NCBI GenBank assembly: GCA_015063745.1
Contig: SVTO01000026.1
Location: forward strand, 1 to 37,261
Length of the DNA: 37,261 nt
Source: Oscillospiraceae bacterium
Lineage (GTDB): Bacteria > Bacillota > Clostridia > Oscillospirales > CAG-272
Reading direction: 5' to 3'
Positions 194-37,261 of this stretch are shown here, piece by piece. The translations under genes and the position numbers were made by a program. Each line of letters begins with the position of its first letter. Position 1 is the stretch's first letter. The notes beneath the pieces were generated by a model. The model was given only the letters and a program-made list of their open reading frames with translations, was not told the DNA's origin and searched no databases.

Positions 194-1930
194 TCAGTCC
201 GCCTCACTGACGGACTTCCAGTCCAACCCGTAATCGTTGCGGATGACCGTGTCATCCAGCACAAAAAATGCGTCTTGTGCGTATACATCCCCGGTGCCGA
301 ATTTCATCGTCTCCGCATCATACTTGCCGCGGTAAACCGCCAGATGAATGTGCGCGCCGGTGGATATGCCCGCTGTGCCGTTGCGGTAGAAATATTCTCC
401 CTGCGTCAGCACACGGCCAACCGTCAGATCCGCAATGTCGTTGTCGTGCATGTATAATACCGTCATGTAATCATAACTGCCGTCCGCATAACGTACCTTG
501 TTGATGCTCTCGATCCAGACACCGTTGCAGGTCGCGTATCCCGGGTTCACTGCCACTACCTTCGCGTTGAACGGCGCAAATGCCATGCCGTTGGTCGGCT
601 GCATGTCCAGCGCGTTCTGGCTCTGGTGGGAATAGGTGTCGTATGCACCCTGGGTGATCTGCATCGTCTGAGCCGGGAACAGCGCCAGATCCTGGCCCGC
701 AGAGTTGATGATCCCCTGCTTCTCAATAATCCAGGTCAGTGCCGTTTCCGTTTCGTCCGCCAGCCGGATCGCCGCCCCGTTGTTCAGTCCGCCGGCCGTC
801 AGATACTTTTCTCCGTTCTTCGTCAGACCGCAGATTCTCCATGTACCGTCTACGTCGCCCTGAATCGAAAATTCCAGCGCACTGGCCGATACGTCACGGT
901 ATAACCCTACGGATACACCGTCACGGCCAACACCCAGTACTCTGTTGAATCCGCCCCGGCTGCAGGCTGCGTAAATCAGATATGTACCCCTCGCCGTGCG
1001 CTCCAGACGGAAAGACTGGGTAATGTCATCCGTATTCCGCCACAGCGTTACGCCAAGCCCTTCATAATCCCGGTTCGGTCCGTCGGCCAGTACGTTCAGC
1101 ACACAGTCCTCGGTCTCCGATGCACGGATCGTGTAGTATCCGTCGGGAATGATCCACTCCGCCGTGTAACCGACCGCATCCATGTATGCCTTCGTTTCCT
1201 CCGCATCCGTACTCCACAGCAGGAATACCGCGTCGGAATGGGACATCACGCCCTTGGCCGCCAGCTTCTCCGACAGCATCCGGGCAGAATTCTTCATCGT
1301 TGTGCGCAGCGTGTTGTACATCGCCGCTACCGCATCTCCGCGGGTCATGGGTTTGTCCTCGCTCTTCTCGGCAATGCCCGCACTTTCTGCCAGGGATGCC
1401 GCGTTGAGGATCGAATAGTCACCCTTCTGGATCCGATACCCCAGAGCGTAGAGCATATAGCTCATGAACACTTCCTGGGACATGGGCGAGTCGGGATAGA
1501 ACTTCAATTCCGGATTGATCTCCGCCAGACCGCAGGCGTGCAGATACCCTACATACGATGCAGCCCATTCGGGAACGTCCGTGAAGGGATGGGTGTACCC
1601 TCCGGAGGGCAGATCGGCTTCCACGCCCATCAGACGTACCGCCATTACCGCACCTTCCATCCGGGTAAGGTCACGTTCCAAATCGAAGGAGATCCCGCCA
1701 TTGACCGCTGTGCCGGTGCCGGTGATCAGATGGAGATAGTACAGCCGCATGGCCGCTTCCTCCGGTACCAGGGTAAGGCCGGCCTGAATATGGGAAGAGA
1801 TGGCGTGCTTTGCAAGGGTGTTTCTCAGTGCGGAAGCGGATGCCACATCGGTGGGAACCACTGCGCTGATCGGCTGAACCAGCATAAGCAATGCCAGTAC
1901 AGCAGAGAGAAGCATGGCGCTTCGTTTCAT
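194..1930 (-). CDS. Secreted SLH / beta-trefoil / M23-like peptidase domain protein
   Basis: A 578-residue exported protein. Residues 1-23 form a signal peptide. Residues about 80-210 look like degenerate S-layer-homology repeats (FTDVPEWAASYV, then a TRGDAV motif), which would anchor it to the cell wall. Residues about 260-400 resemble a ricin-type beta-trefoil. Residues about 420-560 match an M23/LytM-type fold, with candidate zinc ligands H435 and D442 and an HIH pair at H527/H529; H495 is another candidate. The H-to-D spacing is seven residues rather than the usual four. Likely role: cutting or binding peptidoglycan at the surface. ATG is preceded by AAAGGA about 7 nt away, with a consensus promoter further upstream, so it is probably transcribed alone. 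Domain limits are approximate, and peptidase activity is inferred. Confidence 0.75.
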   Translation of the reverse strand: MKRSAMLLSAVLALLMLVQPISAVVPTDVASASALRNTLAKHAISSHIQAGLTLVPEEAAMRLYYLHLITGTGTAVNGGISFDLERDLTRMEGAVMAVRLMGVEADLPSGGYTHPFTDVPEWAASYVGYLHACGLAEINPELKFYPDSPMSQEVFMSYMLYALGYRIQKGDYSILNAASLAESAGIAEKSEDKPMTRGDAVAAMYNTLRTTMKNSARMLSEKLAAKGVMSHSDAVFLLWSTDAEETKAYMDAVGYTAEWIIPDGYYTIRASETEDCVLNVLADGPNRDYEGLGVTLWRNTDDITQSFRLERTARGTYLIYAACSRGGFNRVLGVGRDGVSVGLYRDVSASALEFSIQGDVDGTWRICGLTKNGEKYLTAGGLNNGAAIRLADETETALTWIIEKQGIINSAGQDLALFPAQTMQITQGAYDTYSHQSQNALDMQPTNGMAFAPFNAKVVAVNPGYATCNGVWIESINKVRYADGSYDYMTVLYMHDNDIADLTVGRVLTQGEYFYRNGTAGISTGAHIHLAVYRGKYDAETMKFGTGDVYAQDAFFVLDDTVIRNDYGLDWKSVSEAD

Positions 1931-2028
1931 GTCATCATCCTTTTTCTCATTTTTGTTCCGCGCTTATATGCCGCAGAAACGGTATTTTCCCCGGAAAGTG
2001 CTTGCCTGCCCGGGAATACCCAAGTTAT

Positions 2029-2057
2029 ATTATACCTGATTATGCAGTATTCGTCAA
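2029..2057 (-). promoter_or_regulatory. Sigma-A promoter of the M23-like gene
   Basis: On the minus strand, TTGACG (2052-2057) and TATAAT (2029-2034) are separated by exactly 17 bp. This lies about 100 nt upstream of the start codon at 1930, so a 5' leader of roughly 90 nt is expected. Confidence 0.8.
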
Positions 2058-2190
2058 GAGCACAGCCCGTGAAAAAACCGCCGTTTCCCTGCCAATTCCC
2101 CGCATTTCTGCATAATTCCGGCAGAATCTTCGGAATTTTCCCGAATATTTCCACATCCGGAAATGATTTTTCCCCCGCCGCAGATACAAA

Positions 2191-2225
2191 AACAGACCCC
2201 CGTGCCCGCAGGCTGAGAGTCCGTT
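2191..2225 (-). terminator. Possible terminator right after the GDPD gene
   Basis: On the minus strand, the arm AACGGACTC begins at the base after the stop codon and pairs with GGGTCTGTT (with G-U pairs), followed by a short T-run. The loop is large (about 16 nt), so this is only a plausible terminator. Confidence 0.4.
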
Positions 2226-3071
2226 TTATTTCTGTTCGTCCGTATAAATACCGGAAATGCCCATTGCAAAATACCCATCCTGCTCCGTGTCCCCGTTGAC
2301 CGTATGTATGTACAAGGGTACGCCGCAGGTCAGCATTTCCTCCACGTATCCGTCCAGGCTGCACAGATCGGCCGCAAAAGTGTAGCCAAACAGCAGCTTC
2401 TCCCCGGCAAGCTCCCGCAGATGGTCCGTGTCCGTTTTTCCAGCCCAGTCCAGCCGGTACAGGGTGTAGATGATGTTCTCAAATCCCATCTCCCATACCG
2501 CATCGTATTCATCCTCATGGTAGATCTGGGCAATAAACCGATGGCGCAGCTCCGGATACCGGGAGGCAATATGGGCCAGCCCTGCCAGATTGTCATCCTT
2601 GATGTCCGTCACGATGTACAGGTCATCGTACTGCAGCAGAAACGCCGCCGCATCCTCCAGCAGCATGGGCGTGTACGTATCGTAGATCCGACATTCCCGG
2701 AATTCCGCAGCCGTCAGCGGTACGTTGTCCGTGATCGCGGACGAATACTGCGTATACCAGTCATGCACGCAGGCTAACTCTCCGTCGGCGGTAAAATTGA
2801 AATCCAGTTCCACAAACCGGCATCCCGCCCCACAGGCCGCTTCCATGGCTTCCCTGCTGTTGGACCCGGTCATTCCGTCCACTGTACCGGCTGCATGGGT
2901 AATATACCGTACCTGCCGGCAAAGCTCCACAATGACCTCCGCCCTGTCCATCACAGCCTCCGCCGTCATGGGATACGTCTTCGGTACAGCCGTTCCCTCC
3001 GGCGCCGTGAGGCACATATGCAAAGCACTCAGACAAATCAGAAGTCCGAGCAAACACCCGATCAGACGCAC
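2226..3071 (-). CDS. Glycerophosphodiester phosphodiesterase family protein, exported
   Basis: 281 residues with a hydrophobic N-terminal segment (about residues 3-22) that is a signal peptide or membrane anchor. The GDPD-family active-site pattern is visible: H59 (THAAG), then E88 and D90 in VELDFNF, then H103 in VHDW. The family hydrolyses glycerophosphodiesters to glycerol-3-phosphate and an alcohol using a metal ion. Outside the membrane it would act on lipid head groups or teichoic-acid fragments; the substrate is not readable from sequence. Start is GTG at 3071, supported by GGGAGGG 5 nt upstream and by the signal peptide beginning there. It lies 77 nt downstream of ispH-S1, and the terminator of that gene falls in its leader, so its own promoter is not obvious. 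Confidence 0.85.
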   Translation of the reverse strand: MRLIGCLLGLLICLSALHMCLTAPEGTAVPKTYPMTAEAVMDRAEVIVELCRQVRYITHAAGTVDGMTGSNSREAMEAACGAGCRFVELDFNFTADGELACVHDWYTQYSSAITDNVPLTAAEFRECRIYDTYTPMLLEDAAAFLLQYDDLYIVTDIKDDNLAGLAHIASRYPELRHRFIAQIYHEDEYDAVWEMGFENIIYTLYRLDWAGKTDTDHLRELAGEKLLFGYTFAADLCSLDGYVEEMLTCGVPLYIHTVNGDTEQDGYFAMGISGIYTDEQK

Positions 3072-24861: not shown

Positions 24862-26040
24862 TTACATATTTTCCAGAACAGCCTTTTCGATATGCCGTCT
24901 TGTAACCTCGTCAGAGTCAGGGCCGCCGAGCATATTGGTGCAGTACACAACGGAAAGCTGACGGGCGGGGTCACACCAGAAATGGGTACCGAATGCACCG
25001 GACCAGCCGAATGTGCCGGCCAGACGGTATTTCAGATGACCCTTATCCTGCATGACAACCTGCACACCCAGACCCCAGGAGTGGGATTCGTCCGTGCCGG
25101 GCAGGTTCAGAGGCAGCTGGGGTTTGCGCATCTCCTGTACCGTTTCCGCTTTCAGAATTCTCACCCCGCAGCTGATGCCGTCATTGCACAGCATATGGGC
25201 AAACCGGCTGTAGTCCGGCAGAGTGGATACCACATTGGCCGCGCCGGAATGATAGGATGCGGGACCCGTACAGATCATGCGCTTGTACTGAGCCAGCAGC
25301 TCACTCTTCTTTTCGGCCGTGATCATGTACATATTTACCGCTCTCTCCCACTGTTCTTCCGTAGGAGCAAAGCCGGTGTCCTTCATATCCAGGGGATCGA
25401 AAATATATTTCTGCGCATATTCTGCGTAGGTCATGCCGGAGGTCACTTCCACGATGTGTGCCAGTACATCAAAACCAACCAGCCAGCTGTAGTACGCCTG
25501 GGTACCCGGGTCAAAGCCGAGATAGGAAGCGCCCCAGTCCTTCATCTTGTCGCCCAGCACGTATCCATTCGGAACACCGCCGTTGCAGTTGTCATCGCCT
25601 TCCGAGGAACCGATGCCGGAGGAATGGCTCAGCAGGTCACGGATGGTGATGGGACGGGGAGCGGGATGGGTGCCGGTGCGCTTGTTTTCCCCATCGAATT
25701 CCGCCACTTCCATATCCATCAGTTCCGGCACATACTTGCCTGCCGGGTCGTCCAGATTCAGTCTGCCCTCTTCCATTTCCCGCAGTACACAGACCGCGGT
25801 GATGGGCTTGGTCATGGATGCCATGCGGAAGATGTGATTTTCTTCCAGGGGAATTTTATTTTCAAGGTCGGCGTAACCGTGGCACTTTTTGTATACGGTT
25901 TTGTCCTTACAGATCACCTGAATGGCTGCGCATACAATTTCGCCGGCCGCAATATCATCTTCGGCCATTTTGTCGATTCCTGCCGTCAGACGGTCGCTCA
26001 GGCCGACTTCCGAGGGGGATGCGTAGGGGAACAGTTCCAT
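24862..26040 (-). CDS. Serine hydrolase, beta-lactamase / family VIII esterase fold
   Basis: 392 residues, no signal peptide, so probably cytoplasmic. The catalytic SxxK is S75-M-T-K78 (FRMASMTKPI). The second tyrosine motif is YYSWLVGFDVLAHIVE: a Tyr-Ser pair followed by FDVL, closer to family VIII carboxylesterases than to class C beta-lactamases, which have Y-x-N. A WSGAFGTHFWCDP segment lies where the third motif falls. Likely an esterase or a peptide/amide hydrolase; I do not call it an antibiotic-resistance gene. Start is ATG at 26040 because GGAGG sits 5 nt before it; a TTG further up would place the ribosome-binding site inside the gene. It is 33 nt downstream of a paralogue. Confidence 0.9.
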   Translation of the reverse strand: MELFPYASPSEVGLSDRLTAGIDKMAEDDIAAGEIVCAAIQVICKDKTVYKKCHGYADLENKIPLEENHIFRMASMTKPITAVCVLREMEEGRLNLDDPAGKYVPELMDMEVAEFDGENKRTGTHPAPRPITIRDLLSHSSGIGSSEGDDNCNGGVPNGYVLGDKMKDWGASYLGFDPGTQAYYSWLVGFDVLAHIVEVTSGMTYAEYAQKYIFDPLDMKDTGFAPTEEQWERAVNMYMITAEKKSELLAQYKRMICTGPASYHSGAANVVSTLPDYSRFAHMLCNDGISCGVRILKAETVQEMRKPQLPLNLPGTDESHSWGLGVQVVMQDKGHLKYRLAGTFGWSGAFGTHFWCDPARQLSVVYCTNMLGGPDSDEVTRRHIEKAVLENM

Positions 26041-26073
26041 AATTACCTCCAAATATTTTCAAGAAACGTTTAT

Positions 26074-27276
26074 TTACTGTACGTCGTTATGCAGTGTACC
26101 GATATTCTCATATACAGCACACTGCAGTTCATGATGCAGCGGTACATTGCAGCCCATCATATTGGTACCGAATACAACGACCATCTGCCGATCCGGATCG
26201 CACCAGAAATAGGTGGCGTATGCACCGGACCAGTAAAATACACCGGGAAGCATGGGCATCTCTTTACCGTTGGTCTTTGTAATTACCCGCACGCCAAGCC
26301 CCCAGGTTTCATATTCACTGTTGCCGGGAATATGGGAGGGCAGCAGCAGGGTATGCATCATTCTCGCGGTTTCTTCCTTCATGATACGCACGCCGCAGCT
26401 GATACCGTCATTGCAGAGCATATGGGCAAAACGGCTGTAGTCGTTCATGGAAGAAACCAGACCGCCGGCACCGGATTCATAAGAAACGGGACACATCCAG
26501 AGAATCTGTTTGTCCAACCAGTTCTGAGGTTCAAATTTTCCTTCTCCGTTCGCCACGCATACTTCCACAGCACGGTTCCACTGTTCCTCGGTGGGATGGA
26601 AAGTGGAATCGGTCATTTCCAGAGGATCAAAGATTCTCTTCTGAGCAAATTCCGCAATGGTCATACCGGAAAGCATTTCCACAAGACGTGCCAGCACATC
26701 GAATGCAATCAGCCAGCTGTAATCCGTTTGTGTACCGGGATCGAAGGCAAGGTAGGAGTTCCCCCAATGTTCGATCTTATCCGCCAATACGCAATTCGGC
26801 GGAAACTCCATATTGCATTCCAGTTTATCCTGGTGCATACCGCTGAGAAGACCGTTGGAATGGCTCAGCAGATCATGTATTGTAATCGGTCTGGGGGACG
26901 GGTGGGTGCCGATACGGTTGCCTTCCGCGTCGAATTCCGCTACCTGCATATCCTTGAAAACAGGCATATATTTTTCGATGGGATCTTCTATGTCAATTTT
27001 GCCTTCTTCTACCAGCAGCATCACGCACACTGTTATCACCGGTTTGGTCATGGATGCCATACGGAAAAGGCTGTTTTCTCTGAGAGGACGTTTTTCCGTA
27101 TAGTTTTCGTACCCGCGGTCACTCCTGTATACCACTTTATCCTTACAGATAATCTGTACCGATTCGCTGGTAACCCAACCGTCGGCTAAATGTTTTTCCA
27201 TCATTGCATCAATGGCACTTGTAAGGTTTTTATCAAGACCAACCTCTTCGGGTGTTGCATTCGAGAAATATTTCAT
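26074..27276 (-). CDS. Serine hydrolase, paralogue of the downstream gene
   Basis: 400 residues, aligning end to end with the next gene. It has the same SxxK (S75-M-T-K78), the same YSWLIAFDVLARLVE block, shared strings such as SRFAHMLCNDGISCGVRI, and the ending WSGAYATYFWCDPDRQ. The pair clearly arose by duplication and has since diverged widely, mainly in the segment around residues 150-175 and in the C-terminus, suggesting different substrates. Family: beta-lactamase-like serine hydrolase, probably an esterase. AGGAGG lies about 7 nt before the ATG. A promoter is placed upstream, so both genes are likely one transcript. Confidence 0.9.
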   Translation of the reverse strand: MKYFSNATPEEVGLDKNLTSAIDAMMEKHLADGWVTSESVQIICKDKVVYRSDRGYENYTEKRPLRENSLFRMASMTKPVITVCVMLLVEEGKIDIEDPIEKYMPVFKDMQVAEFDAEGNRIGTHPSPRPITIHDLLSHSNGLLSGMHQDKLECNMEFPPNCVLADKIEHWGNSYLAFDPGTQTDYSWLIAFDVLARLVEMLSGMTIAEFAQKRIFDPLEMTDSTFHPTEEQWNRAVEVCVANGEGKFEPQNWLDKQILWMCPVSYESGAGGLVSSMNDYSRFAHMLCNDGISCGVRIMKEETARMMHTLLLPSHIPGNSEYETWGLGVRVITKTNGKEMPMLPGVFYWSGAYATYFWCDPDRQMVVVFGTNMMGCNVPLHHELQCAVYENIGTLHNDVQ

Positions 27277-27546: not shown

Positions 27547-28539
27547 ATGAAAAATAAACTGCTATCCGTAATTCTCTTATGCACAATCCTGTTCTCCCTC
27601 TCCGCCTGTGCATCATCCGATGCCCCTTCACCGGACGGACTACATATCGTCACCACCAATTTCGCCCTCTACGATTTCGCATCCGCCGTATGCGGGGAGG
27701 ACGACACCGTGACCATGCTCCTGCCGCCCGGTGCGGAAAGTCATGACTACGAGGTTTCCTTTGCCGATATGGCGATACTGGAAAAATGCGACCTCTTGTT
27801 CTGCGTCGGCGGGGAAAGCGAAGAATGGGTCGGCAAAGCTCTCCTTGCCCTTTCGGAATACGACAGCGCACCGGAAACCCTGTGTGCTCTGGATGTGATC
27901 CGTGATGCCGGCAAGCTGCTCTGCGAAGCCACCGTCCTCTCCTCCGACGAAGCCCATGACCACGATCACGATCACAGCCATGCGGAAGACTATACCGGTA
28001 TGGACGAGCACGTATGGACCGCCATTCCCAATGCCGTTCTGCTGATGGATGCGCTGGATGAGACCCTCGCCGGGCTGGATGAGGATCACGTAACGGGCCG
28101 TCATGAAGCCTATGCCGCATCCCTTTCCGCTCTGGATGAAAAGTTCCGCAGCTTAACCGCCAATACCGCCGATCCCCGCATCATCGTGGCCGACCGGTTC
28201 CCCTTCCTGTACATGGCAGAAGAATACGGCATCGGCTATTACGCCGCCTTTGCGGGATGTGCCTCCGATACCGAGCCTTCCGTGGCGGTGGTGAACACCC
28301 TGATCGGTCTGGTGAAGGATACGGGTGCGAAGACTGTCTTTGTTATCGAATTCTCCGACCGCCGTACCGCGGAGCTGATTGCCGCCGAAACCGGTGCGGA
28401 TGTGGCAGAACTGCATTCCTGTCACAATGTATCCGCCGCAGATTTTGCCGCCGGGATTACCTATCTGCAGCTGATGGAGAAAAACTACGCCACCCTCGCC
28501 GCCGCATGGGAAACGGCAAATACCACCTTACAGGACTGA
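27547..28539 (+). CDS. znuA: Zinc/manganese ABC transporter substrate-binding lipoprotein
   Basis: 330 residues. Lipobox LSAC with lipidated C21. Cluster A-I metal-binding fold: first metal histidine H66 in GAESHDYE, a histidine-rich flexible loop HDHDHDHSH (about residues 137-147) typical of zinc-binding ZnuA/AdcA, and a further ligand in MDEHVW. Captures Zn2+ (possibly Mn2+) outside the membrane for ZnuBC. The ribosome-binding site is weak (GAAAG). First gene of a three-gene operon; znuC follows 12 nt later. Zinc is favoured over manganese because of the His-rich loop, but this is an inference. Confidence 0.92.
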   Translation: MKNKLLSVILLCTILFSLSACASSDAPSPDGLHIVTTNFALYDFASAVCGEDDTVTMLLPPGAESHDYEVSFADMAILEKCDLLFCVGGESEEWVGKALLALSEYDSAPETLCALDVIRDAGKLLCEATVLSSDEAHDHDHDHSHAEDYTGMDEHVWTAIPNAVLLMDALDETLAGLDEDHVTGRHEAYAASLSALDEKFRSLTANTADPRIIVADRFPFLYMAEEYGIGYYAAFAGCASDTEPSVAVVNTLIGLVKDTGAKTVFVIEFSDRRTAELIAAETGADVAELHSCHNVSAADFAAGITYLQLMEKNYATLAAAWETANTTLQD

Positions 28540-28551
28540 GGAAACCGACTG

Positions 28552-29346
28552 ATGAACACAAACAAAATTTTACTGCGTATCGAAAACCTGACCCTTTCCT
28601 ACGGCAATGTACCCGTGGTGGAGAACTTGTCCTTTGACGTCTGTGCCGGGGATTATCTCTGCATCGTAGGCGAAAACGGCAGCGGTAAGTCCACTCTGCT
28701 CAAGGCCCTGACCGGCAACCGCAGACCCGACAGCGGCACCATCCGCAGAGAAGGTGTGCGCTACATGGGTTATCTGCCCCAGCAGTCGGAGATCCAGCGG
28801 GATTTTCCGGCGTCGGTCTGGGAAGTGGCGGTATCCGGCTGTCTGGAACGGGAAAGAAATGAAAAACACCCCTTCCGTCCGGGATTCGGTTATTCCGCCG
28901 CCGGGAAAAAGCGTGCCGCCGAAGCCCTTGAAATGCTGGACATTGCCCACCTGGCGAAAAAGCCCTACAATACCCTCTCCGGCGGTCAGCAGCAGCGGGT
29001 TCTTCTGGCCAGAGCGCTGTGTGCCTCGGAGGAGCTGATCCTGCTGGACGAGCCTGTGACCGGTCTTGATCCGGGGGCAACCAAAGAATTGTATGCCATC
29101 ATCCGTCGTCTGCACCGCAGCGGGACTGCCATATTGATGGTCACGCACGATATTGAAGCGGCGCTGACGGAATCCCATCATATTCTCTGCCTGTGCCAGC
29201 GGCATCCGGAAAAGCAGAACGCCGCGGCTCCCTTTTACGGCACATCGGCGGAATACAAGGCTTCCCTTTCCGGGGACGGCTGTTCCTGTTGTACGCCCGC
29301 GAAACCGAACACCGCAAATCCGAAAATCCTGCCGCCCACACTGTAA
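28552..29346 (+). CDS. znuC: Zinc/manganese ABC transporter ATP-binding protein
   Basis: 264 residues. Walker A GENGSGKST, Q-loop LPQQ, ABC signature LSGGQQQR, Walker B LILLDEP and switch histidine VTHD are all present, so it should be an active ATPase. Typical ZnuC/MntB size, except for a C-terminal tail with the cysteine cluster GCSCC and a proline-rich end, beyond the usual domain. GAGGAAACC lies before the ATG. The next gene begins 11 nt after its stop, indicating one operon with the binding lipoprotein and permease. Confidence 0.94.
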   Translation: MNTNKILLRIENLTLSYGNVPVVENLSFDVCAGDYLCIVGENGSGKSTLLKALTGNRRPDSGTIRREGVRYMGYLPQQSEIQRDFPASVWEVAVSGCLERERNEKHPFRPGFGYSAAGKKRAAEALEMLDIAHLAKKPYNTLSGGQQQRVLLARALCASEELILLDEPVTGLDPGATKELYAIIRRLHRSGTAILMVTHDIEAALTESHHILCLCQRHPEKQNAAAPFYGTSAEYKASLSGDGCSCCTPAKPNTANPKILPPTL

Positions 29347-29357
29347 GGAGAACTGCT

Positions 29358-30218
29358 ATGACATTTACGGAAATTCTCTCATCCCCCTTTCTCACCGCGC
29401 TGGTAGGGAAATCCCTTGTTGTGGGTATTCTCGTATCCCTGTGCGCTTCTCTGCTGGGCGTATCCCTTGTGCTGAAGCGGTATTCCATGATCGGCGACGG
29501 GCTGTCCCATGTGGGATTTTTCGCCCTTGCTCTGGCTGCAGCGGCCGGGGTCAGCGGTACCCATTCTCTGGAAGCATCCCTGCCCATCGTGATTCTGGCG
29601 GCGGTGCTGATCTTACGGCTGAGCCGTTCGGAGAAAATCAACGGGGATGCGGCCTGCGCCATCGTTTCTACGGGTGCTGTGGCCATCGGTACTCTGATCA
29701 ACAACCTGACCGGCACCGGCAGCTCCGATGTATGCAGCAGTCTGTTCGGTTCCGCCTCCATTGTGACCCTGTCCGACAAGGATTTATGGATCAGCATCGT
29801 TCTGTCCGCGGCGGTGCTTGTCTGGTACGGCATTTTCGCCCGGCAGATTTTCGCCGTGACCTTTGACGAAACCTTCGCCCGTTCCGCCGGATGCCGCACG
29901 GAGGGCATCAATCTGGCCCTTGCGGTTCTGACGGGTGTTACCATTGTGCTGGGCATGAAGATGATGGGTGCACTGATGATCTCCGCCCTGATCCTGTTCC
30001 CGCCCATGACCGCCATGCGTCTGTTCGGCAGCTTCCGCAGTGTGGTACTGTCCGCGGCTGCGGTGTCGGTGGTATGTTTCCTCATCGGATTCTTTCTGGC
30101 CTGCTGGCTCGGTCTGCAGACGGGTGCGACGGTAGTAACGGTGAATGTGCTGGTATTCTGCATTGTCAGCGGCATCCGTGCAGTTCTGCCGAAGCTGCTG
30201 CGGAAGAAGACGGCGTGA
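29358..30218 (+). CDS. znuB: Zinc/manganese ABC transporter permease
   Basis: 286 residues with about eight hydrophobic helices, ABC-3 family. Landmarks are VLKRYSMIGDGLSHVGFFALAL near the N-terminus, DETFARSAGC in the middle (the loop contacting the ATPase) and KMMGALMISALILFPPMTAM. ATG at 29358 is chosen because AAGGAG lies just before it; the longer open frame upstream overlaps znuC and is not used. It completes the uptake system for the metal bound by the lipoprotein. A strong terminator follows. Confidence 0.94.
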   Translation: MTFTEILSSPFLTALVGKSLVVGILVSLCASLLGVSLVLKRYSMIGDGLSHVGFFALALAAAAGVSGTHSLEASLPIVILAAVLILRLSRSEKINGDAACAIVSTGAVAIGTLINNLTGTGSSDVCSSLFGSASIVTLSDKDLWISIVLSAAVLVWYGIFARQIFAVTFDETFARSAGCRTEGINLALAVLTGVTIVLGMKMMGALMISALILFPPMTAMRLFGSFRSVVLSAAAVSVVCFLIGFFLACWLGLQTGATVVTVNVLVFCIVSGIRAVLPKLLRKKTA

Positions 30219-30241: not shown

Positions 30242-30292
30242 GCACCGCCCGAGTATGGAAGAATTTCTTCCGTATCGGGACGGTGCGTTTTT
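30242..30292. terminator. Bidirectional terminator between znuB and the MerR gene
   Basis: Long hairpin: GCACCG/CGGTGC (30242-30247 with 30281-30286), CCCG/CGGG, then GGAAGAA/TTCTTCC at the tip. GTTTTTT follows on the plus strand, and TTTTTCTTA on the minus strand. It ends both convergent units. Confidence 0.93.
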
Positions 30293-30297
30293 TATTT

Positions 30298-31830
30298 TCA
30301 GTGAGAATCGGAATGGGCTATATTTTCTTCTGTGTTATGTTTCCGACGGAAAAAGGATACAAATACCAGAATACCCGCCGTAATAAGGGGAATAAACTTC
30401 AGACTGCGGATGTACAGATCAAACCACTCCGAACTTCCGCTCAGAACACTCCACATAAAAGAAAGGCGATACATCACAAATTCACTCAGATAAAGCTGTT
30501 CCCGGATCATCCAGGGCTGGAACAGCAGAATCGCCGTCGTCACAACACATAAAACCCCGGAAACCAGAAGCAGGATCTTCTGTCTGCGGATCATCTGCAA
30601 AAACAGTACGACCACCGCCGCTGTCATACACGCCCACGCAATAACAAGGGGCAGATAAGCGACAAAAGTATATATGGAAAGGTTGTAGACATACTCATAT
30701 ACGCCGCCGCTTAGAATTCGTATTTCCCCGAAAATTGTCCGGATCACCACCGGTGTGAACAGGATCACATCCGCAAGCAGGAAAACAAAAGCAATCACCG
30801 GTGATTTGTGTAACGGTTCGGTATTCGGGGTGATTTTTTTGCTTTCTCTGGATTTCTCTTTCTTAGCCCGCCGCAGCGGAGCGATTTTCTGTATCAGATT
30901 TTCCTCTTCAGTCTGCTGTGTCCGCTGACGGAAAAAGGATACAAAAGAAAGGACAGCCGCCGCAGTGATCGGGATATATTTCAGACTCCGGATGAAGAAA
31001 TCAAAACCCTCCGTTTCACCTTTCATGATACTCCACATAAACGAGAAACGGTACTGCAGAAATTCACAGCTGTACATTTCAGCATCCGCCTCTTCTCCAA
31101 GCAAAAGCATAGCCGTCGCCGCAAGGATACACAAAATGCCGCTTACAAGTAAGTGTCTGTTCTTTCCGCCGATCAAATAATCGAACAGTACAGCAATCAC
31201 CGCTGCCATACAAAGCCACGCAATGACAAGAGGCAGGCAGGTAATAAACGCATCGGCAGAGAATGTATACACCCATTCATAACCGCCGCCCGCATGTATT
31301 CTCGTTTCTCCGAACATCGTCCGGACCGTCACCGGTGTAAGCAGCACAATCCCCACCAGCATCACCGCAAAGGCAACCAGCGCCGGTATCCTCTTTTTCA
31401 CAATCTCCTGAACATCTCTCCATCGCATACTCAAGTCCTCCTTAGGTATATGATTCAAGGAGGCTGACCGGCGAAGATGTCCGGCGATTTCCATATACGT
31501 GGGAGCGGCGGTTCCGTCGATCTCCCGCAGTCTGGCAAGGATCATCTGCTTGTTTTCAATATCCCCGACAAGCTTCTGTTTATGGGCTTCCAGAATCTCC
31601 TCCACCTTCTCCGGTTCACTCTGCATGGCCCGGATATCCGCAATGGAAAAATCCGCCTTGCGCAGAGTGGCCACCGCTTCCAGGATTTCCACATCCGACT
31701 CGGAAAAGCGGATGGACTTGCGTCCGGTGTAACTGCTCTCCGCATCCGGGGTGATCAGTCCGCTGTCCATATACAGCCGTACCGCCCGATCCGTCAGCCC
31801 GGTTCTCCCGCATACATCTTTCATTCGCAT
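30298..31830 (-). CDS. MerR-type regulator fused to a duplicated four-helix membrane domain
   Basis: 510 residues. Residues 1-70 are a MerR winged helix (MRMKDVCGRTGLTDRAVRLY, then FSESDVEILEAVATLRKADF), and about 72-110 the dimerisation coiled coil. Two copies of a membrane module follow, about residues 150-300 and 344-494, offset by 194 residues. Each has four hydrophobic helices. Shared motifs are TPV-x-x-RT-x-FGE, LPLVIAW-x-CM-x-A, LLVSG-x-LC, YR-x-SFMWS, IRSLK-x-IP and FVSFFR. A charged linker (301-343, many Lys/Arg) joins them. Predicted topology puts the DNA-binding part and linker inside and the aromatic-rich loops outside, suggesting a membrane-embedded sensor that controls transcription directly. 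I do not recognise the membrane module. ATG at 31830 has AAAGGAG 8 nt upstream. The promoter has a MerR-type operator. Confidence 0.85.
   Translation of the reverse strand: MRMKDVCGRTGLTDRAVRLYMDSGLITPDAESSYTGRKSIRFSESDVEILEAVATLRKADFSIADIRAMQSEPEKVEEILEAHKQKLVGDIENKQMILARLREIDGTAAPTYMEIAGHLRRSASLNHIPKEDLSMRWRDVQEIVKKRIPALVAFAVMLVGIVLLTPVTVRTMFGETRIHAGGGYEWVYTFSADAFITCLPLVIAWLCMAAVIAVLFDYLIGGKNRHLLVSGILCILAATAMLLLGEEADAEMYSCEFLQYRFSFMWSIMKGETEGFDFFIRSLKYIPITAAAVLSFVSFFRQRTQQTEEENLIQKIAPLRRAKKEKSRESKKITPNTEPLHKSPVIAFVFLLADVILFTPVVIRTIFGEIRILSGGVYEYVYNLSIYTFVAYLPLVIAWACMTAAVVVLFLQMIRRQKILLLVSGVLCVVTTAILLFQPWMIREQLYLSEFVMYRLSFMWSVLSGSSEWFDLYIRSLKFIPLITAGILVFVSFFRRKHNTEENIAHSDSH
31426..31443 (-). 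promoter_or_regulatory. Internal ribosome-binding site inside the MerR fusion gene
   Basis: On the minus strand, AAGGAGG (31437-31443) is followed after 8 nt by an in-frame ATG at 31428 (Met135), exactly between the coiled coil and the first membrane helix. Initiation here would give a 376-residue membrane protein without the DNA-binding domain. Confidence 0.5.
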
Positions 31831-31852: not shown

Positions 31853-31883
31853 AGTATAGCATTTCACCTTGGGTGAAAGTCAA
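31853..31883 (-). promoter_or_regulatory. MerR-type promoter with 19-bp spacer and central dyad
   Basis: On the minus strand, TTGACT (31878-31883) and TATACT (31853-31858) are 19 bp apart, the stretched spacing typical of MerR-activated promoters. Between and partly overlapping the -35 box lies the dyad TTTCACC/GGTGAAA with a 3-bp centre (31862-31878). It is 23 nt before the gene, so the regulator probably controls itself. A further copy of GGGTGAAAGT lies at 31914-31923. The rest of 31884-32051 shows no gene. Confidence 0.85.
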
Positions 31884-34706: not shown

Positions 34707-37261
34707 TTATTCAGCTTCAACAACACCCAGGTCGAAGATGGTGAAGAGAACGGTGTCAGTATCGTATACAACAGCAACCTTGTGAGTTACGCCGTTCCAT
34801 GCACCGCCGATAACTTCGCCGGAAACGTCCTTGCAGGTGATGTTGCCGTTAGCGTCAACAGCATACTTAACGATACCAGCGTAACCGCCGCATACTACCA
34901 TATCTTCAGCGATTTCAGGATGCTTCCAGCCGTAACCAGCGTTGTTGGCCAGAGTGCCGATGCACAGATCATCGGTTTCAATCCACCAGCTGTCTGTACC
35001 ACCCTTAGTCATGGTGATGGTCAGTTCTTCGGTGGTGCCGTCAGCGTTGATCCACTTGTCGAGCAGGATGTATCTGCCGCCGTCGTAGGTGTACATGTTA
35101 GCCATTTCGTCGGTATCCCAGTACAGTTCCTTAGCCATGTCGATGAATTCGTCCATGGTTTCGAACATGGGTTCACCTTCCAGGTTGGTGCCGAAGCCGT
35201 ACCATTCGCCGATGATAACACCGCCGATTACACGGTAAGCCTGGCCTACCTTGAAGTTAACGTTGTTGGCTGCACGAACAACCTGCTGTGCACCGGTCAT
35301 CATGTTGGTTACTACTACGTTGCTCTGCTGTACAGAACCAAGCAGGTAGTCGCCAGCGCCGAGGATTGCATCTTCGGTGATGTCTGCGTCGTAAGCATAG
35401 TTCATTACGTAGCTGTTCTTATCGAACAGAACGATGTCTGTCTGGTATTCGGTGGTGAAGCCAACTACGTCAGCATTGTCTTCATAGAAGAAGATGTAGA
35501 TGCTGTCGGTCTTGTTGCCTTCTGCATCATATACCATAGCTCTTTCGATGTATTCGCAGTTCTTGATGTACCAGTTATCGTTGGTAACGATCCCGTTGAA
35601 TACCTTGATCATGCCGTTGTCGCCGATGAAGATGTACTTATCGTTTTCGGACATGGTCTGAACGTTGCCGTCCCATACTCTGTAACCGCGTTCGAAGGTG
35701 ATGGAGCCAACATTGCGTCCGGTATCCTTGATGTCGTTTACATTCTGGGTTTCAACATGGTAAGCATCCAGTTCTTCGTCGTAAGAGGAGATGTTGTAGA
35801 TGGAACCGGGCATGAACATAGCGTCTTCCAGAGCGTTCATCGGGTAGTACTTGTAGTCACCCTTATGCCAGCCGTTGAAGGAAGCGATCTTGTAGATCTG
35901 TACGCCCATGTCGTTCTTCTTGTCGTTGATATCGTCACGGAGATCCATGGTGGAGTAACCGTAAACAGCGATCAGGTTGTCCTTGGCAGTGATGCCGGCG
36001 TAACCCAGAACAACAATAGCTTCGTCCTGGTACTTAACCTGAGGAATGTCGATGTCAACAACCTTACCGTCAACTACAGTAACCTGAATGTACTTCCACA
36101 GGAATTCATTCAGCATCTGAGCCATAGCCTTACCTTCAGCGTTCAGGTAATAGCCGCCCCATTCGTCCTGATCTCTCAGAGAAGTGAATACAGCACCTTC
36201 CAGGTTTTCGTAACCGATGGGCAGAACTCTGCCGTCCAGGTTAATCTTGGAGGTACCCTTTTCGGTGATGGTGTAGCCCTTCAGCATACCCTTGAAGATA
36301 CCGTTATCGGGATCGTCGGAGAATCTGGGGATTACACGCTGAATGTCAATGTTCTTGGCATTTTCGTCGAAGTGGCAGAGGATAACCATTTCGTTGTTAT
36401 CCTTACCGTCGTTTTCGCCGCGGTACATGTACTTGGTCAGATCCTGGATGGAAGTGAACTGAGTTACTTCTTCACCGCATTCGATGGACCATTCCTGCAG
36501 GAAGTTCAGCAGGTAGAGACCGCTGTATACGGAGTGAGTTTCACCGAATACGCACCAGTCTTCGCCGTTGAGTTTCTGCCAGTAGTCCAGAGCCAGGATA
36601 CCGGCAGCGCTCTGAGAGCCTGCCCAGTCCCAAACAGCGTCCCATACGGTCAGCTGAGCCAGTCTGTAGGTCTTGTACATAGCACGGTCAGCAACGCCGT
36701 CGCCGTCTACATCGTACAGTCTCAGTCTTGCATATGCGGTAGCGGTGTCGGGAGAAGTGGTCAGAGCGTAACGGGAGATCTTACCCTTAGCAACCTGAAC
36801 AGCTTCTGCGTACCATTCTTCAAATACGGTTTCATCCATGAAGTCAACAGCAACCTTGTTAGCGCCGTCGTCCCAGATTACCTTGTAGTACTGGTTGTTA
36901 ACCTGGTCATACCACCATTCAACCTTCCAGTTACCGGAGGAATCCTTCTTCAGGATGTTCAGAGAGTTCACGTCAACTGCAACCTGAGTCTTATCGATAA
37001 CGTAAGTGGAGGTAGCGGTGTGCGCAAACAGCATCAGTTCCGGCTTGTCAGCTTCGGAAATGTAGGGAGTGTCATAGTACTTGGTAACCAGGTTGTACTT
37101 CATCAGCTCGAAACGAGCGTTCTGCTGAGAACCGGCATTCCATACTTCCTTGATCATCAGGTTATGCGCTTCGATCATGTTAACGATACCGTTGTCAGCA
37201 ACTTCGAACAGAGCGAGGTAGGTTTCGCCGATCAGCTGCTGTTCCTGGTTGCCGGAAGTGG
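34707..37261 (-). CDS. Large secreted or surface protein, N-terminus outside the window
   Basis: At least 850 residues; the reading frame stays open to the window edge, so the start is missing. I do not recognise a family. It is acidic, rich in Asp, Asn, Tyr and Trp, and poor in Lys/Arg and Cys, with many beta-type segments and a calcium-site-like DVDGDGVADRAM (once). That pattern fits an S-layer or other wall-attached protein, whose anchor (for example SLH repeats) would be in the missing part. Codon choice is much more restricted than in most neighbours (GCT, GTT, AAC, GAA, CTG favoured), like the S1 half of ispH and atpE, suggesting very high expression. It has its own strong terminator. 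Function is inferred only. Confidence 0.75.
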   Translation of the reverse strand, partial: TSGNQEQQLIGETYLALFEVADNGIVNMIEAHNLMIKEVWNAGSQQNARFELMKYNLVTKYYDTPYISEADKPELMLFAHTATSTYVIDKTQVAVDVNSLNILKKDSSGNWKVEWWYDQVNNQYYKVIWDDGANKVAVDFMDETVFEEWYAEAVQVAKGKISRYALTTSPDTATAYARLRLYDVDGDGVADRAMYKTYRLAQLTVWDAVWDWAGSQSAAGILALDYWQKLNGEDWCVFGETHSVYSGLYLLNFLQEWSIECGEEVTQFTSIQDLTKYMYRGENDGKDNNEMVILCHFDENAKNIDIQRVIPRFSDDPDNGIFKGMLKGYTITEKGTSKINLDGRVLPIGYENLEGAVFTSLRDQDEWGGYYLNAEGKAMAQMLNEFLWKYIQVTVVDGKVVDIDIPQVKYQDEAIVVLGYAGITAKDNLIAVYGYSTMDLRDDINDKKNDMGVQIYKIASFNGWHKGDYKYYPMNALEDAMFMPGSIYNISSYDEELDAYHVETQNVNDIKDTGRNVGSITFERGYRVWDGNVQTMSENDKYIFIGDNGMIKVFNGIVTNDNWYIKNCEYIERAMVYDAEGNKTDSIYIFFYEDNADVVGFTTEYQTDIVLFDKNSYVMNYAYDADITEDAILGAGDYLLGSVQQSNVVVTNMMTGAQQVVRAANNVNFKVGQAYRVIGGVIIGEWYGFGTNLEGEPMFETMDEFIDMAKELYWDTDEMANMYTYDGGRYILLDKWINADGTTEELTITMTKGGTDSWWIETDDLCIGTLANNAGYGWKHPEIAEDMVVCGGYAGIVKYAVDANGNITCKDVSGEVIGGAWNGVTHKVAVVYDTDTVLFTIFDLGVVEAE

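What the first reader, a model, noticed from the sequence alone, without database searches (positions are those of the whole stretch)
30298..31830. Membrane-embedded MerR regulator with a duplicated four-helix sensor
A MerR DNA-binding head is joined to two homologous membrane modules (194-residue offset) with strongly conserved shared motifs (RT-x-FGE, LPLVIAW, YR-x-SFMWS, IRSLK-x-IP, FVSFFR) and aromatic-rich outer loops. MerR proteins are normally soluble. This looks like a one-component transmembrane signalling protein with an unknown ligand and an internally duplicated sensor.
Basis: partly seen in the sequence, partly recalled or inferred. Interest (0 to 1): 0.75.

Follow-up and report, generated by a model that had tools for sequence, protein, structure and literature searches.

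The report
Membrane-embedded, self-regulating MerR protein
A bacterial gene switch of a kind known as soluble proteins is here built into the cell membrane, seems to control mainly its own gene, and carries a hidden second start that would make a membrane-only version, as in known drug-trapping switches.

Summary
In detail: window 30298-31830 (-) encodes 510 aa, a MerR head plus two homologous four-helix membrane modules 194 residues apart. It is not a misjoin: 13 loci from other genomes encode MerR + ONE module (one cut by a contig end). The duplication was seen only here.

Two features change the reading. (1) All 14 family genes have a MerR-type promoter (19-bp spacer with dyad) before themselves. 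In 9 genomes searched with a 31-base operator pattern, the only site at <=1 mismatch is the gene's own promoter. (2) Just before the first membrane helix, 13 of 14 genes carry AAGGAGG-8 nt-ATG in frame, held at nucleotide level and, averaged over 11 genes, more base-paired than synonymous shuffles. This predicts a membrane-only short product.

Self-regulation plus two in-frame products is the plan of TipA, a MerR protein that traps antibiotics; AlbA adds a tandem-duplicated binding domain. I read this as a membrane-embedded analogue with an unrelated module of claudin-like topology and unknown ligand. Autoregulation and internal start are well supported by sequence; ligand trapping is inference.

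The parts
30298..31830 (-). CDS of the long product, 510 aa: MerR head + two 4-TM modules
31853..31883 (-). MerR-type promoter of the gene: TTGACT - 19 bp - TATACT; dyad TTCACC/GGTGAA in the spacer (31862-31877)
31621..31830 (-). MerR winged-HTH, residues 1-70
   Evidence: PF13411 E=1.7e-11
31522..31614 (-). predicted long helix, residues 73-103 (position of the MerR dimerisation helix)
   Evidence: AF2 model
31457..31463 (-). CCTCCTT, 5' arm of a hairpin pairing with the internal Shine-Dalgarno (13-nt loop)
31437..31443 (-). internal Shine-Dalgarno AAGGAGG
31426..31428 (-). internal start codon ATG (Met135), 8 nt after the Shine-Dalgarno
30298..31428 (-). predicted short product, 376 aa, membrane modules only
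   Evidence: inferred from the internal start
30910..31392 (-). membrane module 1 (residues about 147-307): TM1, outer beta hairpin, TM2, TM3, outer helix, TM4
   Evidence: module model pLDDT 90.7
30328..30810 (-). membrane module 2 (residues about 341-501), copy of module 1
30242..30286 (.). long inverted repeat with T-rich tails on both strands between this gene and the convergent ABC-3 permease gene (znuB-like): probable shared terminator
   Evidence: + strand terminator-like site at 30271-30287; minus-strand tail read by eye

Best explanation
It is a self-regulating membrane protein gene built on the TipA/AlbA plan. The long product sits in the membrane with its MerR head in the cytoplasm on its own promoter, whose 19-bp spacer is too long for RNA polymerase until MerR distorts it. 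A compound that enters or binds the outer side of the membrane module would change the head and switch on the gene. The same mRNA then yields the long protein and, from the internal start at Met135, a membrane-only short protein. The short protein (and the long one) would bind or sequester the compound, probably a membrane- or envelope-directed antimicrobial or lipid-like molecule, until the signal falls. In this species the module was duplicated in tandem, as in AlbA. Shown by sequence: MerR head, membrane module, own operator, conserved internal ribosome-binding site, duplication. Inferred: topology, ligand-driven switching, production of the short form, sequestration as the output.
For: 19-bp spacer with dyad in front of 14 of 14 family genes. 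In 9 genomes searched with the 31-base pattern, 1 site per genome at <=1 mismatch, in each case the gene's own promoter; 6 further sites at 2 mismatches lie in front of other MerR genes (5) or of a gene that looks like a membrane protein (1); the backwards-pattern control gave 0 in all 9. No neighbouring gene is shared by all 13 relatives, though close kin share some (by eye). Internal AAGGAGG-8 nt-ATG in frame in 13 of 14 family genes, against SD + GTG in 3 of 83 other MerR proteins of 200 aa or more. The K codon is AAG in 13 of 13 and the E codon GAG in 14 of 14, while other conserved K/E columns are mixed; product of own-gene codon frequencies 2.8e-8 for 13 genes, 7e-7 for 11 without near-copies (the genes are related, so not strict probabilities). 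The residue after K-E changes (D, V, E) but its first base stays G. The short form matches a unit that also occurs alone: stand-alone relatives of 176 aa (L043, E=1.4e-8) and 191 aa (L171, E=3.3e-5). Positive control: of 18 long TipAS frames in the same order (17 with a MerR-like head by eye), 11 have an internal SD+start before TipAS, 8 by the strict SD list (29 of 30 fetched loci were scanned, 18 of them long). TipA: two alternative starts, own gene induced by the drug; AlbA: two in-frame products and a tandem domain (PMC7762955, PMC6078987, passages).
Against: No ligand, no drug and no short protein has been seen. The operator pattern was built from the family's own promoters, so targets with other spacing or sequence would be missed; the window's assembly is 82% complete. 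One of 14 genes (L056) lacks the internal start (GTC) and the full SD. Hairpin masking is clear in only some genes and absent in L050 (78 of 100 shuffles as high). 7 of 18 long TipAS frames lack the internal SD+start, so the signal is not universal even in the known class. No drug-related neighbour is shared by the family. The short form could act otherwise, for example as a dominant-negative partner.
Confidence: 0.5

Rival explanations
1. An ordinary one-component transmembrane regulator: the module senses an outside ligand, the long protein regulates other genes, and the short product is absent or unimportant.
For: MerR + membrane architecture. Conserved charged/aromatic residues lie in predicted outer parts. 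One 2-mismatch operator site precedes a gene that looks like a membrane protein in G051. Many other membrane MerRs occur in these genomes.
Against: No second operator at <=1 mismatch in 9 of 9 genomes; own genome 1 site with up to 3 mismatches of a 31-base pattern. Does not explain the nucleotide-level conservation of the internal SD.
Confidence: 0.25
2. The K-E-D-x-x-M motif is conserved for the protein (for example a helix cap before TM1), and the Shine-Dalgarno likeness is a by-product.
For: The residues K-E and the Met are conserved as amino acids too.
Against: Codon choice is fixed (AAG 13/13, GAG 14/14) where other K/E columns are mixed. D/V/E variants keep the G; the spacing suits initiation. 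The linker just upstream is 30% identical against 62% for the motif.
Confidence: 0.12
3. The membrane module is an enzyme, transporter or bacteriocin-immunity protein. The MerR head was fused to it merely to control its dose; no ligand is trapped.
For: Stand-alone modules exist without MerR. The module is the part that would be over-produced.
Against: No credible Pfam, NCBIfam or PDB-sequence match (stand-alone L043 none). No cluster of catalytic-looking residues; in 15 modules only F, R, K, P are invariant.
Confidence: 0.12
4. The duplicated form is an assembly artefact of this one metagenome bin.
For: Only this genome shows two modules in one frame.
Against: The copies are 46.5% identical in protein and 61% in DNA, too far apart for an assembly repeat. 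One uninterrupted frame. Copies are sister in the tree, support 92/90.
Confidence: 0.03

Closest known systems
TipA class (TipAL/TipAS; MerR head + PF07739)
   Same: MerR head, own long-spacer promoter, own gene as target, internal start giving the effector domain alone
   Different: Effector is an integral membrane module with no TipAS domain; ligand unknown; two modules in the window protein
AlbA (AlbAL/AlbAS)
   Same: MerR head, two in-frame products, TANDEM ligand domain (PMC6078987, passages)
   Different: AlbA's domains are soluble and bind albicidin; no sequence relation to the membrane module turned up in the searches made
Transmembrane transcription regulators (ToxR, CadC and others; PMC10269533)
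   Same: DNA-binding domain anchored in the membrane, one-component
   Different: MerR-type promoter, polytopic 4-/8-TM module, seemingly only self-regulating, predicted short isoform. The only word beginning with 'merr' in that survey's main text is an author's name; its supplementary tables were not read
Claudin / TARP / LHFPL four-helix membrane proteins
   Same: 4-TM bundle with a beta hairpin in the first outer loop; Foldseek's first 18 PDB hits for the module are entries of this group (E 0.016-0.19, prob 0.94-1.00; one, 7ldd_G, is titled only 'native AMPA receptor')

Membership tests
MerR superfamily | N-terminal MerR winged HTH | tested here: met
   PF13411 E=1.7e-11, over the curated cut-off
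MerR superfamily | promoter with 19-20 bp spacer holding a dyad | tested here: met
   19 bp in 14 of 14 family genes; 75 of 87 other MerR loci
MerR superfamily | DNA binding and promoter distortion | not testable with these tools
   needs biochemistry
TipA class | TipAS effector domain PF07739 | tested here: not met
   no TipAS match up to E=1
TipA class | two in-frame translation products | tested here: inconclusive
   internal SD+ATG conserved in 13 of 14 genes; the product itself was not seen
TipA class | own gene is the target | tested here: inconclusive
   own promoter is the only site at <=1 mismatch in 9 of 9 genomes; binding untested
TipA class | binds and neutralises antibiotics | not testable with these tools
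   ligand unknown
Transmembrane transcription regulators | DNA-binding domain and TM helices in one protein | tested here: met
   (predicted; localisation not tested)
Claudin superfamily | four-TM claudin fold | tested here: inconclusive
Claudin superfamily | W-GLW-C-C motif in the first outer loop (motif recalled, from no call) | tested here: not met
   no cysteine in the first outer loop of either window copy

The most novel reading that the evidence does not exclude
A class of minimal, self-contained membrane defence genes of gut Oscillospiraceae-type bacteria: one gene encodes sensor, promoter switch and membrane-embedded 'sponge'. The sponge (short form, claudin-like module) is made from a hairpin-masked internal ribosome site opened by ribosomes translating the long form. 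This would be TipA logic moved into the membrane, with AlbA-like tandem duplication reached independently.
Probability: 0.3. Interest if true: 0.8.

Novelty: new variant of a known kind. Interest (0 to 1): 0.62.

Why it matters
MerR regulators are known as soluble proteins (recalled; a MerR review, PMC9909328, contains the letters 'membrane' nowhere in its main text). A membrane-embedded, self-targeted, two-product MerR would extend the 'single-gene resistance' logic of TipA/AlbA to ligands met in or outside the membrane. It also gives a simple way to find such ligands: the promoter is its own reporter. Nucleotide-level conservation of an internal start inside a coding region is an unusually direct prediction to test.

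Tried and rejected
Link to the neighbouring znuABC-like operon (27547-30218) or to truB: not supported. In the same-genus genome G142 the znuB-side and the truB/nrnA-side stretches are both present, but about 6 kb apart and with the truB/nrnA block turned round, and the module is absent there. 1 of 25 genus genomes has the module, the own one.

Regulon search: a relaxed 16-base dyad gave 3 extra sites in the own genome and 2 in G039, all overlapped by long open frames; the same pattern read backwards gave 6 sites in the 9 genomes, so this is chance level. In that search G051 had no match.

Neighbours: not shared by all 13 relatives, but L048/L049, L049/L057/L058 and L051/L059 share some (by eye); no family scan was made of them.

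Second internal start before module 2: none with an SD (only GTG345). Profile of the module against PDB sequences: nothing credible (E=1.5). Viral fold library: nothing convincing (best E 0.026, a giant-virus protein). Weak module hits L044, L045, L046 and L172 were not counted as relatives. L170 lacks a clear start and was set aside. G542 had two module pieces on two contigs, each cut by a contig end, not a tandem. L077/L169 (one genome, G572) is a family member whose frame is broken between head and module; it was described only and not counted among the 14. L058 is cut by a contig end but counted for promoter and internal start. L058 and L059 are near-copies of L049 and L051 and were dropped from the 11-gene figures. 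In one search one E codon column printed 13 of 14 because my script read L056 three codons off; one search shows GAG in all 14. A first version of the positive control used an HTH model too narrow to see most MerR-TipAS heads (4 of 5 frames with a start) and was replaced; L207 was left out there. L185/L188 and L200/L201/L202 in that control are near-copies.

Paper searches for membrane MerRs: the phrases gave 0 papers; two searches gave 0; some searches gave listings with nothing on the subject. Subscription papers are not in that library.

Full report
What is there. Window 30298-31830 (-) is one 510-aa frame: a MerR winged-HTH head (residues 1-70, PF13411 E=1.7e-11), a predicted long helix where MerR proteins dimerise (residues 73-103), and eight hydrophobic segments in two sets of four. 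The sets are homologous: Smith-Waterman 397 against a maximum of 52 in 500 shuffles, 49% identity in a MAFFT alignment. No Pfam or NCBIfam family covers the membrane part, and no credible PDB sequence matches it.

Family. Searching 146 genomes of the same bacterial family with the whole protein gave matches in 36; the 8 best outside the own genome (41-45% identity over about residues 1-305) have ONE module. A scan of species genomes with the aligned family gave 80 loci. Thirteen (L047-L059, Clostridia/Oscillospiraceae bins, largely from gut samples by their titles; eight of them have the same length and identity as the 8 above) are MerR + one module, L058 being cut by a contig end. Of the other 67 loci, 62 have three or more predicted TM segments, mostly three plus a soluble tail, without this module. 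The loci were fetched by the family's own HTH motifs, so this is not an unbiased census. The module profile matches 18 of 395 family genomes, 6 of 394 genomes of the order and 1 of 25 of the genus, the own one. Some of these matches are weak or belong to stand-alone modules. Two modules in one frame were seen only in the window. In a tree of 15 modules the two window copies are sisters (support 92/90, just under the tool's level for a firm branch), so the duplication most likely happened in this lineage. Stand-alone modules of 176 aa (L043, E=1.4e-8) and 191 aa (L171, E=3.3e-5) exist without a MerR head. In the same-genus genome G142 both flanks of the gene are present, about 6 kb apart and with the truB/nrnA block turned round, without this gene.

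Own promoter. Upstream lies TTGACT-19 bp-TATACT with a TTCACC/GGTGAA dyad in the spacer (31853-31883). All 14 family genes have a 19-bp spacer; so do 75 of 87 other MerR loci examined; random windows of the same loci, which can include real promoters, gave a 19-bp hit in 54 of 3000. Spacers of 19-20 bp are typical of MerR control (PMC9909328, passages). In nine genomes (own + 8) a 31-base operator pattern has exactly one site at <=1 mismatch, in each case the gene's own promoter. Six more sites have 2 mismatches: five precede other MerR genes, one (G051, L135) precedes a 486-aa frame that looks like a membrane protein. The pattern read backwards gave none. In the own genome a tighter pattern with up to 3 mismatches gave only the own promoter. 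A looser dyad search added only 5 sites overlapped by long frames, against 6 for its backwards control. So the gene looks self-regulated and without other recognisable targets. The pattern comes from these same promoters, so unlike targets could be missed, and the assembly is 82% complete.

Hidden second start. In the variable linker before TM1 the window gene reads AAG GAG GAC TTG AGT ATG (K130-M135): a full Shine-Dalgarno, 8 nt, then an in-frame ATG. Thirteen of 14 family genes have AAGGAGG and ATG at this place; L056 does not. Codons AAG (13/13) and GAG (14/14) never vary there, while other conserved K/E columns are mixed. By each gene's own codon use the product is 2.8e-8 (13 genes) or 7e-7 (11 genes); the genes are related, so these are guides, not strict probabilities. 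The following residue is D, V or E, always keeping the G. The same scan finds in-frame SD + GTG in 3 of 83 other MerR proteins. As a positive control, of 18 long TipAS frames in the same order (17 with a MerR-like head by eye) 11 show SD + start before TipAS, 8 with the strict SD list. The linker before the motif is 30% identical, the motif 62%, the HTH 65%, module parts 29-42% (12 rows). The internal SD is also more base-paired than in synonymous shuffles: mean 0.732 over 11 genes against a shuffle mean of 0.598 and maximum of 0.696, 0 of 400 as high. In the window it is a perfect CCTCCTT/AAGGAGG stem. Gene by gene the effect is uneven and L050 goes the other way, and the genes are related, so the hairpin is a lead.

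How it most likely works. TipA is described as a minimal autoregulated multidrug system with sensor, activator and neutraliser in one gene and two translation products (PMC7762955, abstract and passages). AlbA is described as encoding two in-frame products with an unusual tandem of two TipAS-like domains; its authors say the two species still need to be shown in vivo (PMC6078987, passages). The present gene has a MerR head, its own operator, no other recognisable target, an internal start giving the effector part alone, stand-alone relatives of that part and, in this species, a tandem duplication. The economical reading is the same logic in the membrane. A ligand of the module induces the gene, and the short and long products bind it. 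The hairpin could tie short-form synthesis to translation of the long form. Ligand, sequestration and the short protein itself are not shown. It is not a TipA-class member (no PF07739); it works like one.

Known or new. A MerR review contains 'membrane' nowhere in its main text. In a survey of transmembrane regulators the only word beginning with 'merr' in the main text is an author's name (passages and section 6 seen); its supplementary tables were not read. Phrase searches for membrane MerRs found no paper (related searches). Membrane MerRs as such are clearly common in these genomes, so the novelty lies in the self-targeted, two-product design.

Noticed in passing
L023, L024, L026, L027, L028, L030: MerR heads fused to an FGGY-type carbohydrate kinase, 560-580 aa: Pfam FGGY_N and MerR_1 in both of the two scanned, L028 and L030, the other four alike by eye. 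Each has a MerR-type promoter upstream by eye: a possible self-controlled kinase regulator.
   Followed up: partly
L011, L012, L014, L015, L016, L019: MerR heads followed by one or three TM helices and a large tail with CxxC-type or InlB-like repeats (read by eye): membrane MerRs with big, probably extracytoplasmic, domains.
   Followed up: no
L060-L125 (most of these loci): A large class of MerR + 3 TM + soluble tail proteins, mostly about 400 aa, in Clostridia bins, as a rule without the internal start.
   Followed up: partly
L135 (G051), 1501-3022 in the orientation of the site: A MerR-type promoter (19-bp spacer) in front of a 486-aa frame that looks like a membrane protein from its first 80 residues, not a MerR gene.
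   Followed up: no
L187 and G000:C62:14146-14496: The own genome holds two short TipAS-domain frames of about 130 aa.
   Followed up: no
L077 / L169 (G572): A family member whose reading frame is broken between the MerR head and the module; described only.
   Followed up: no
window 34707-37178 (-) and 24892-27189 (+): Two long frames (823 and 765 aa) without a Pfam match over a curated cut-off.
   Followed up: no
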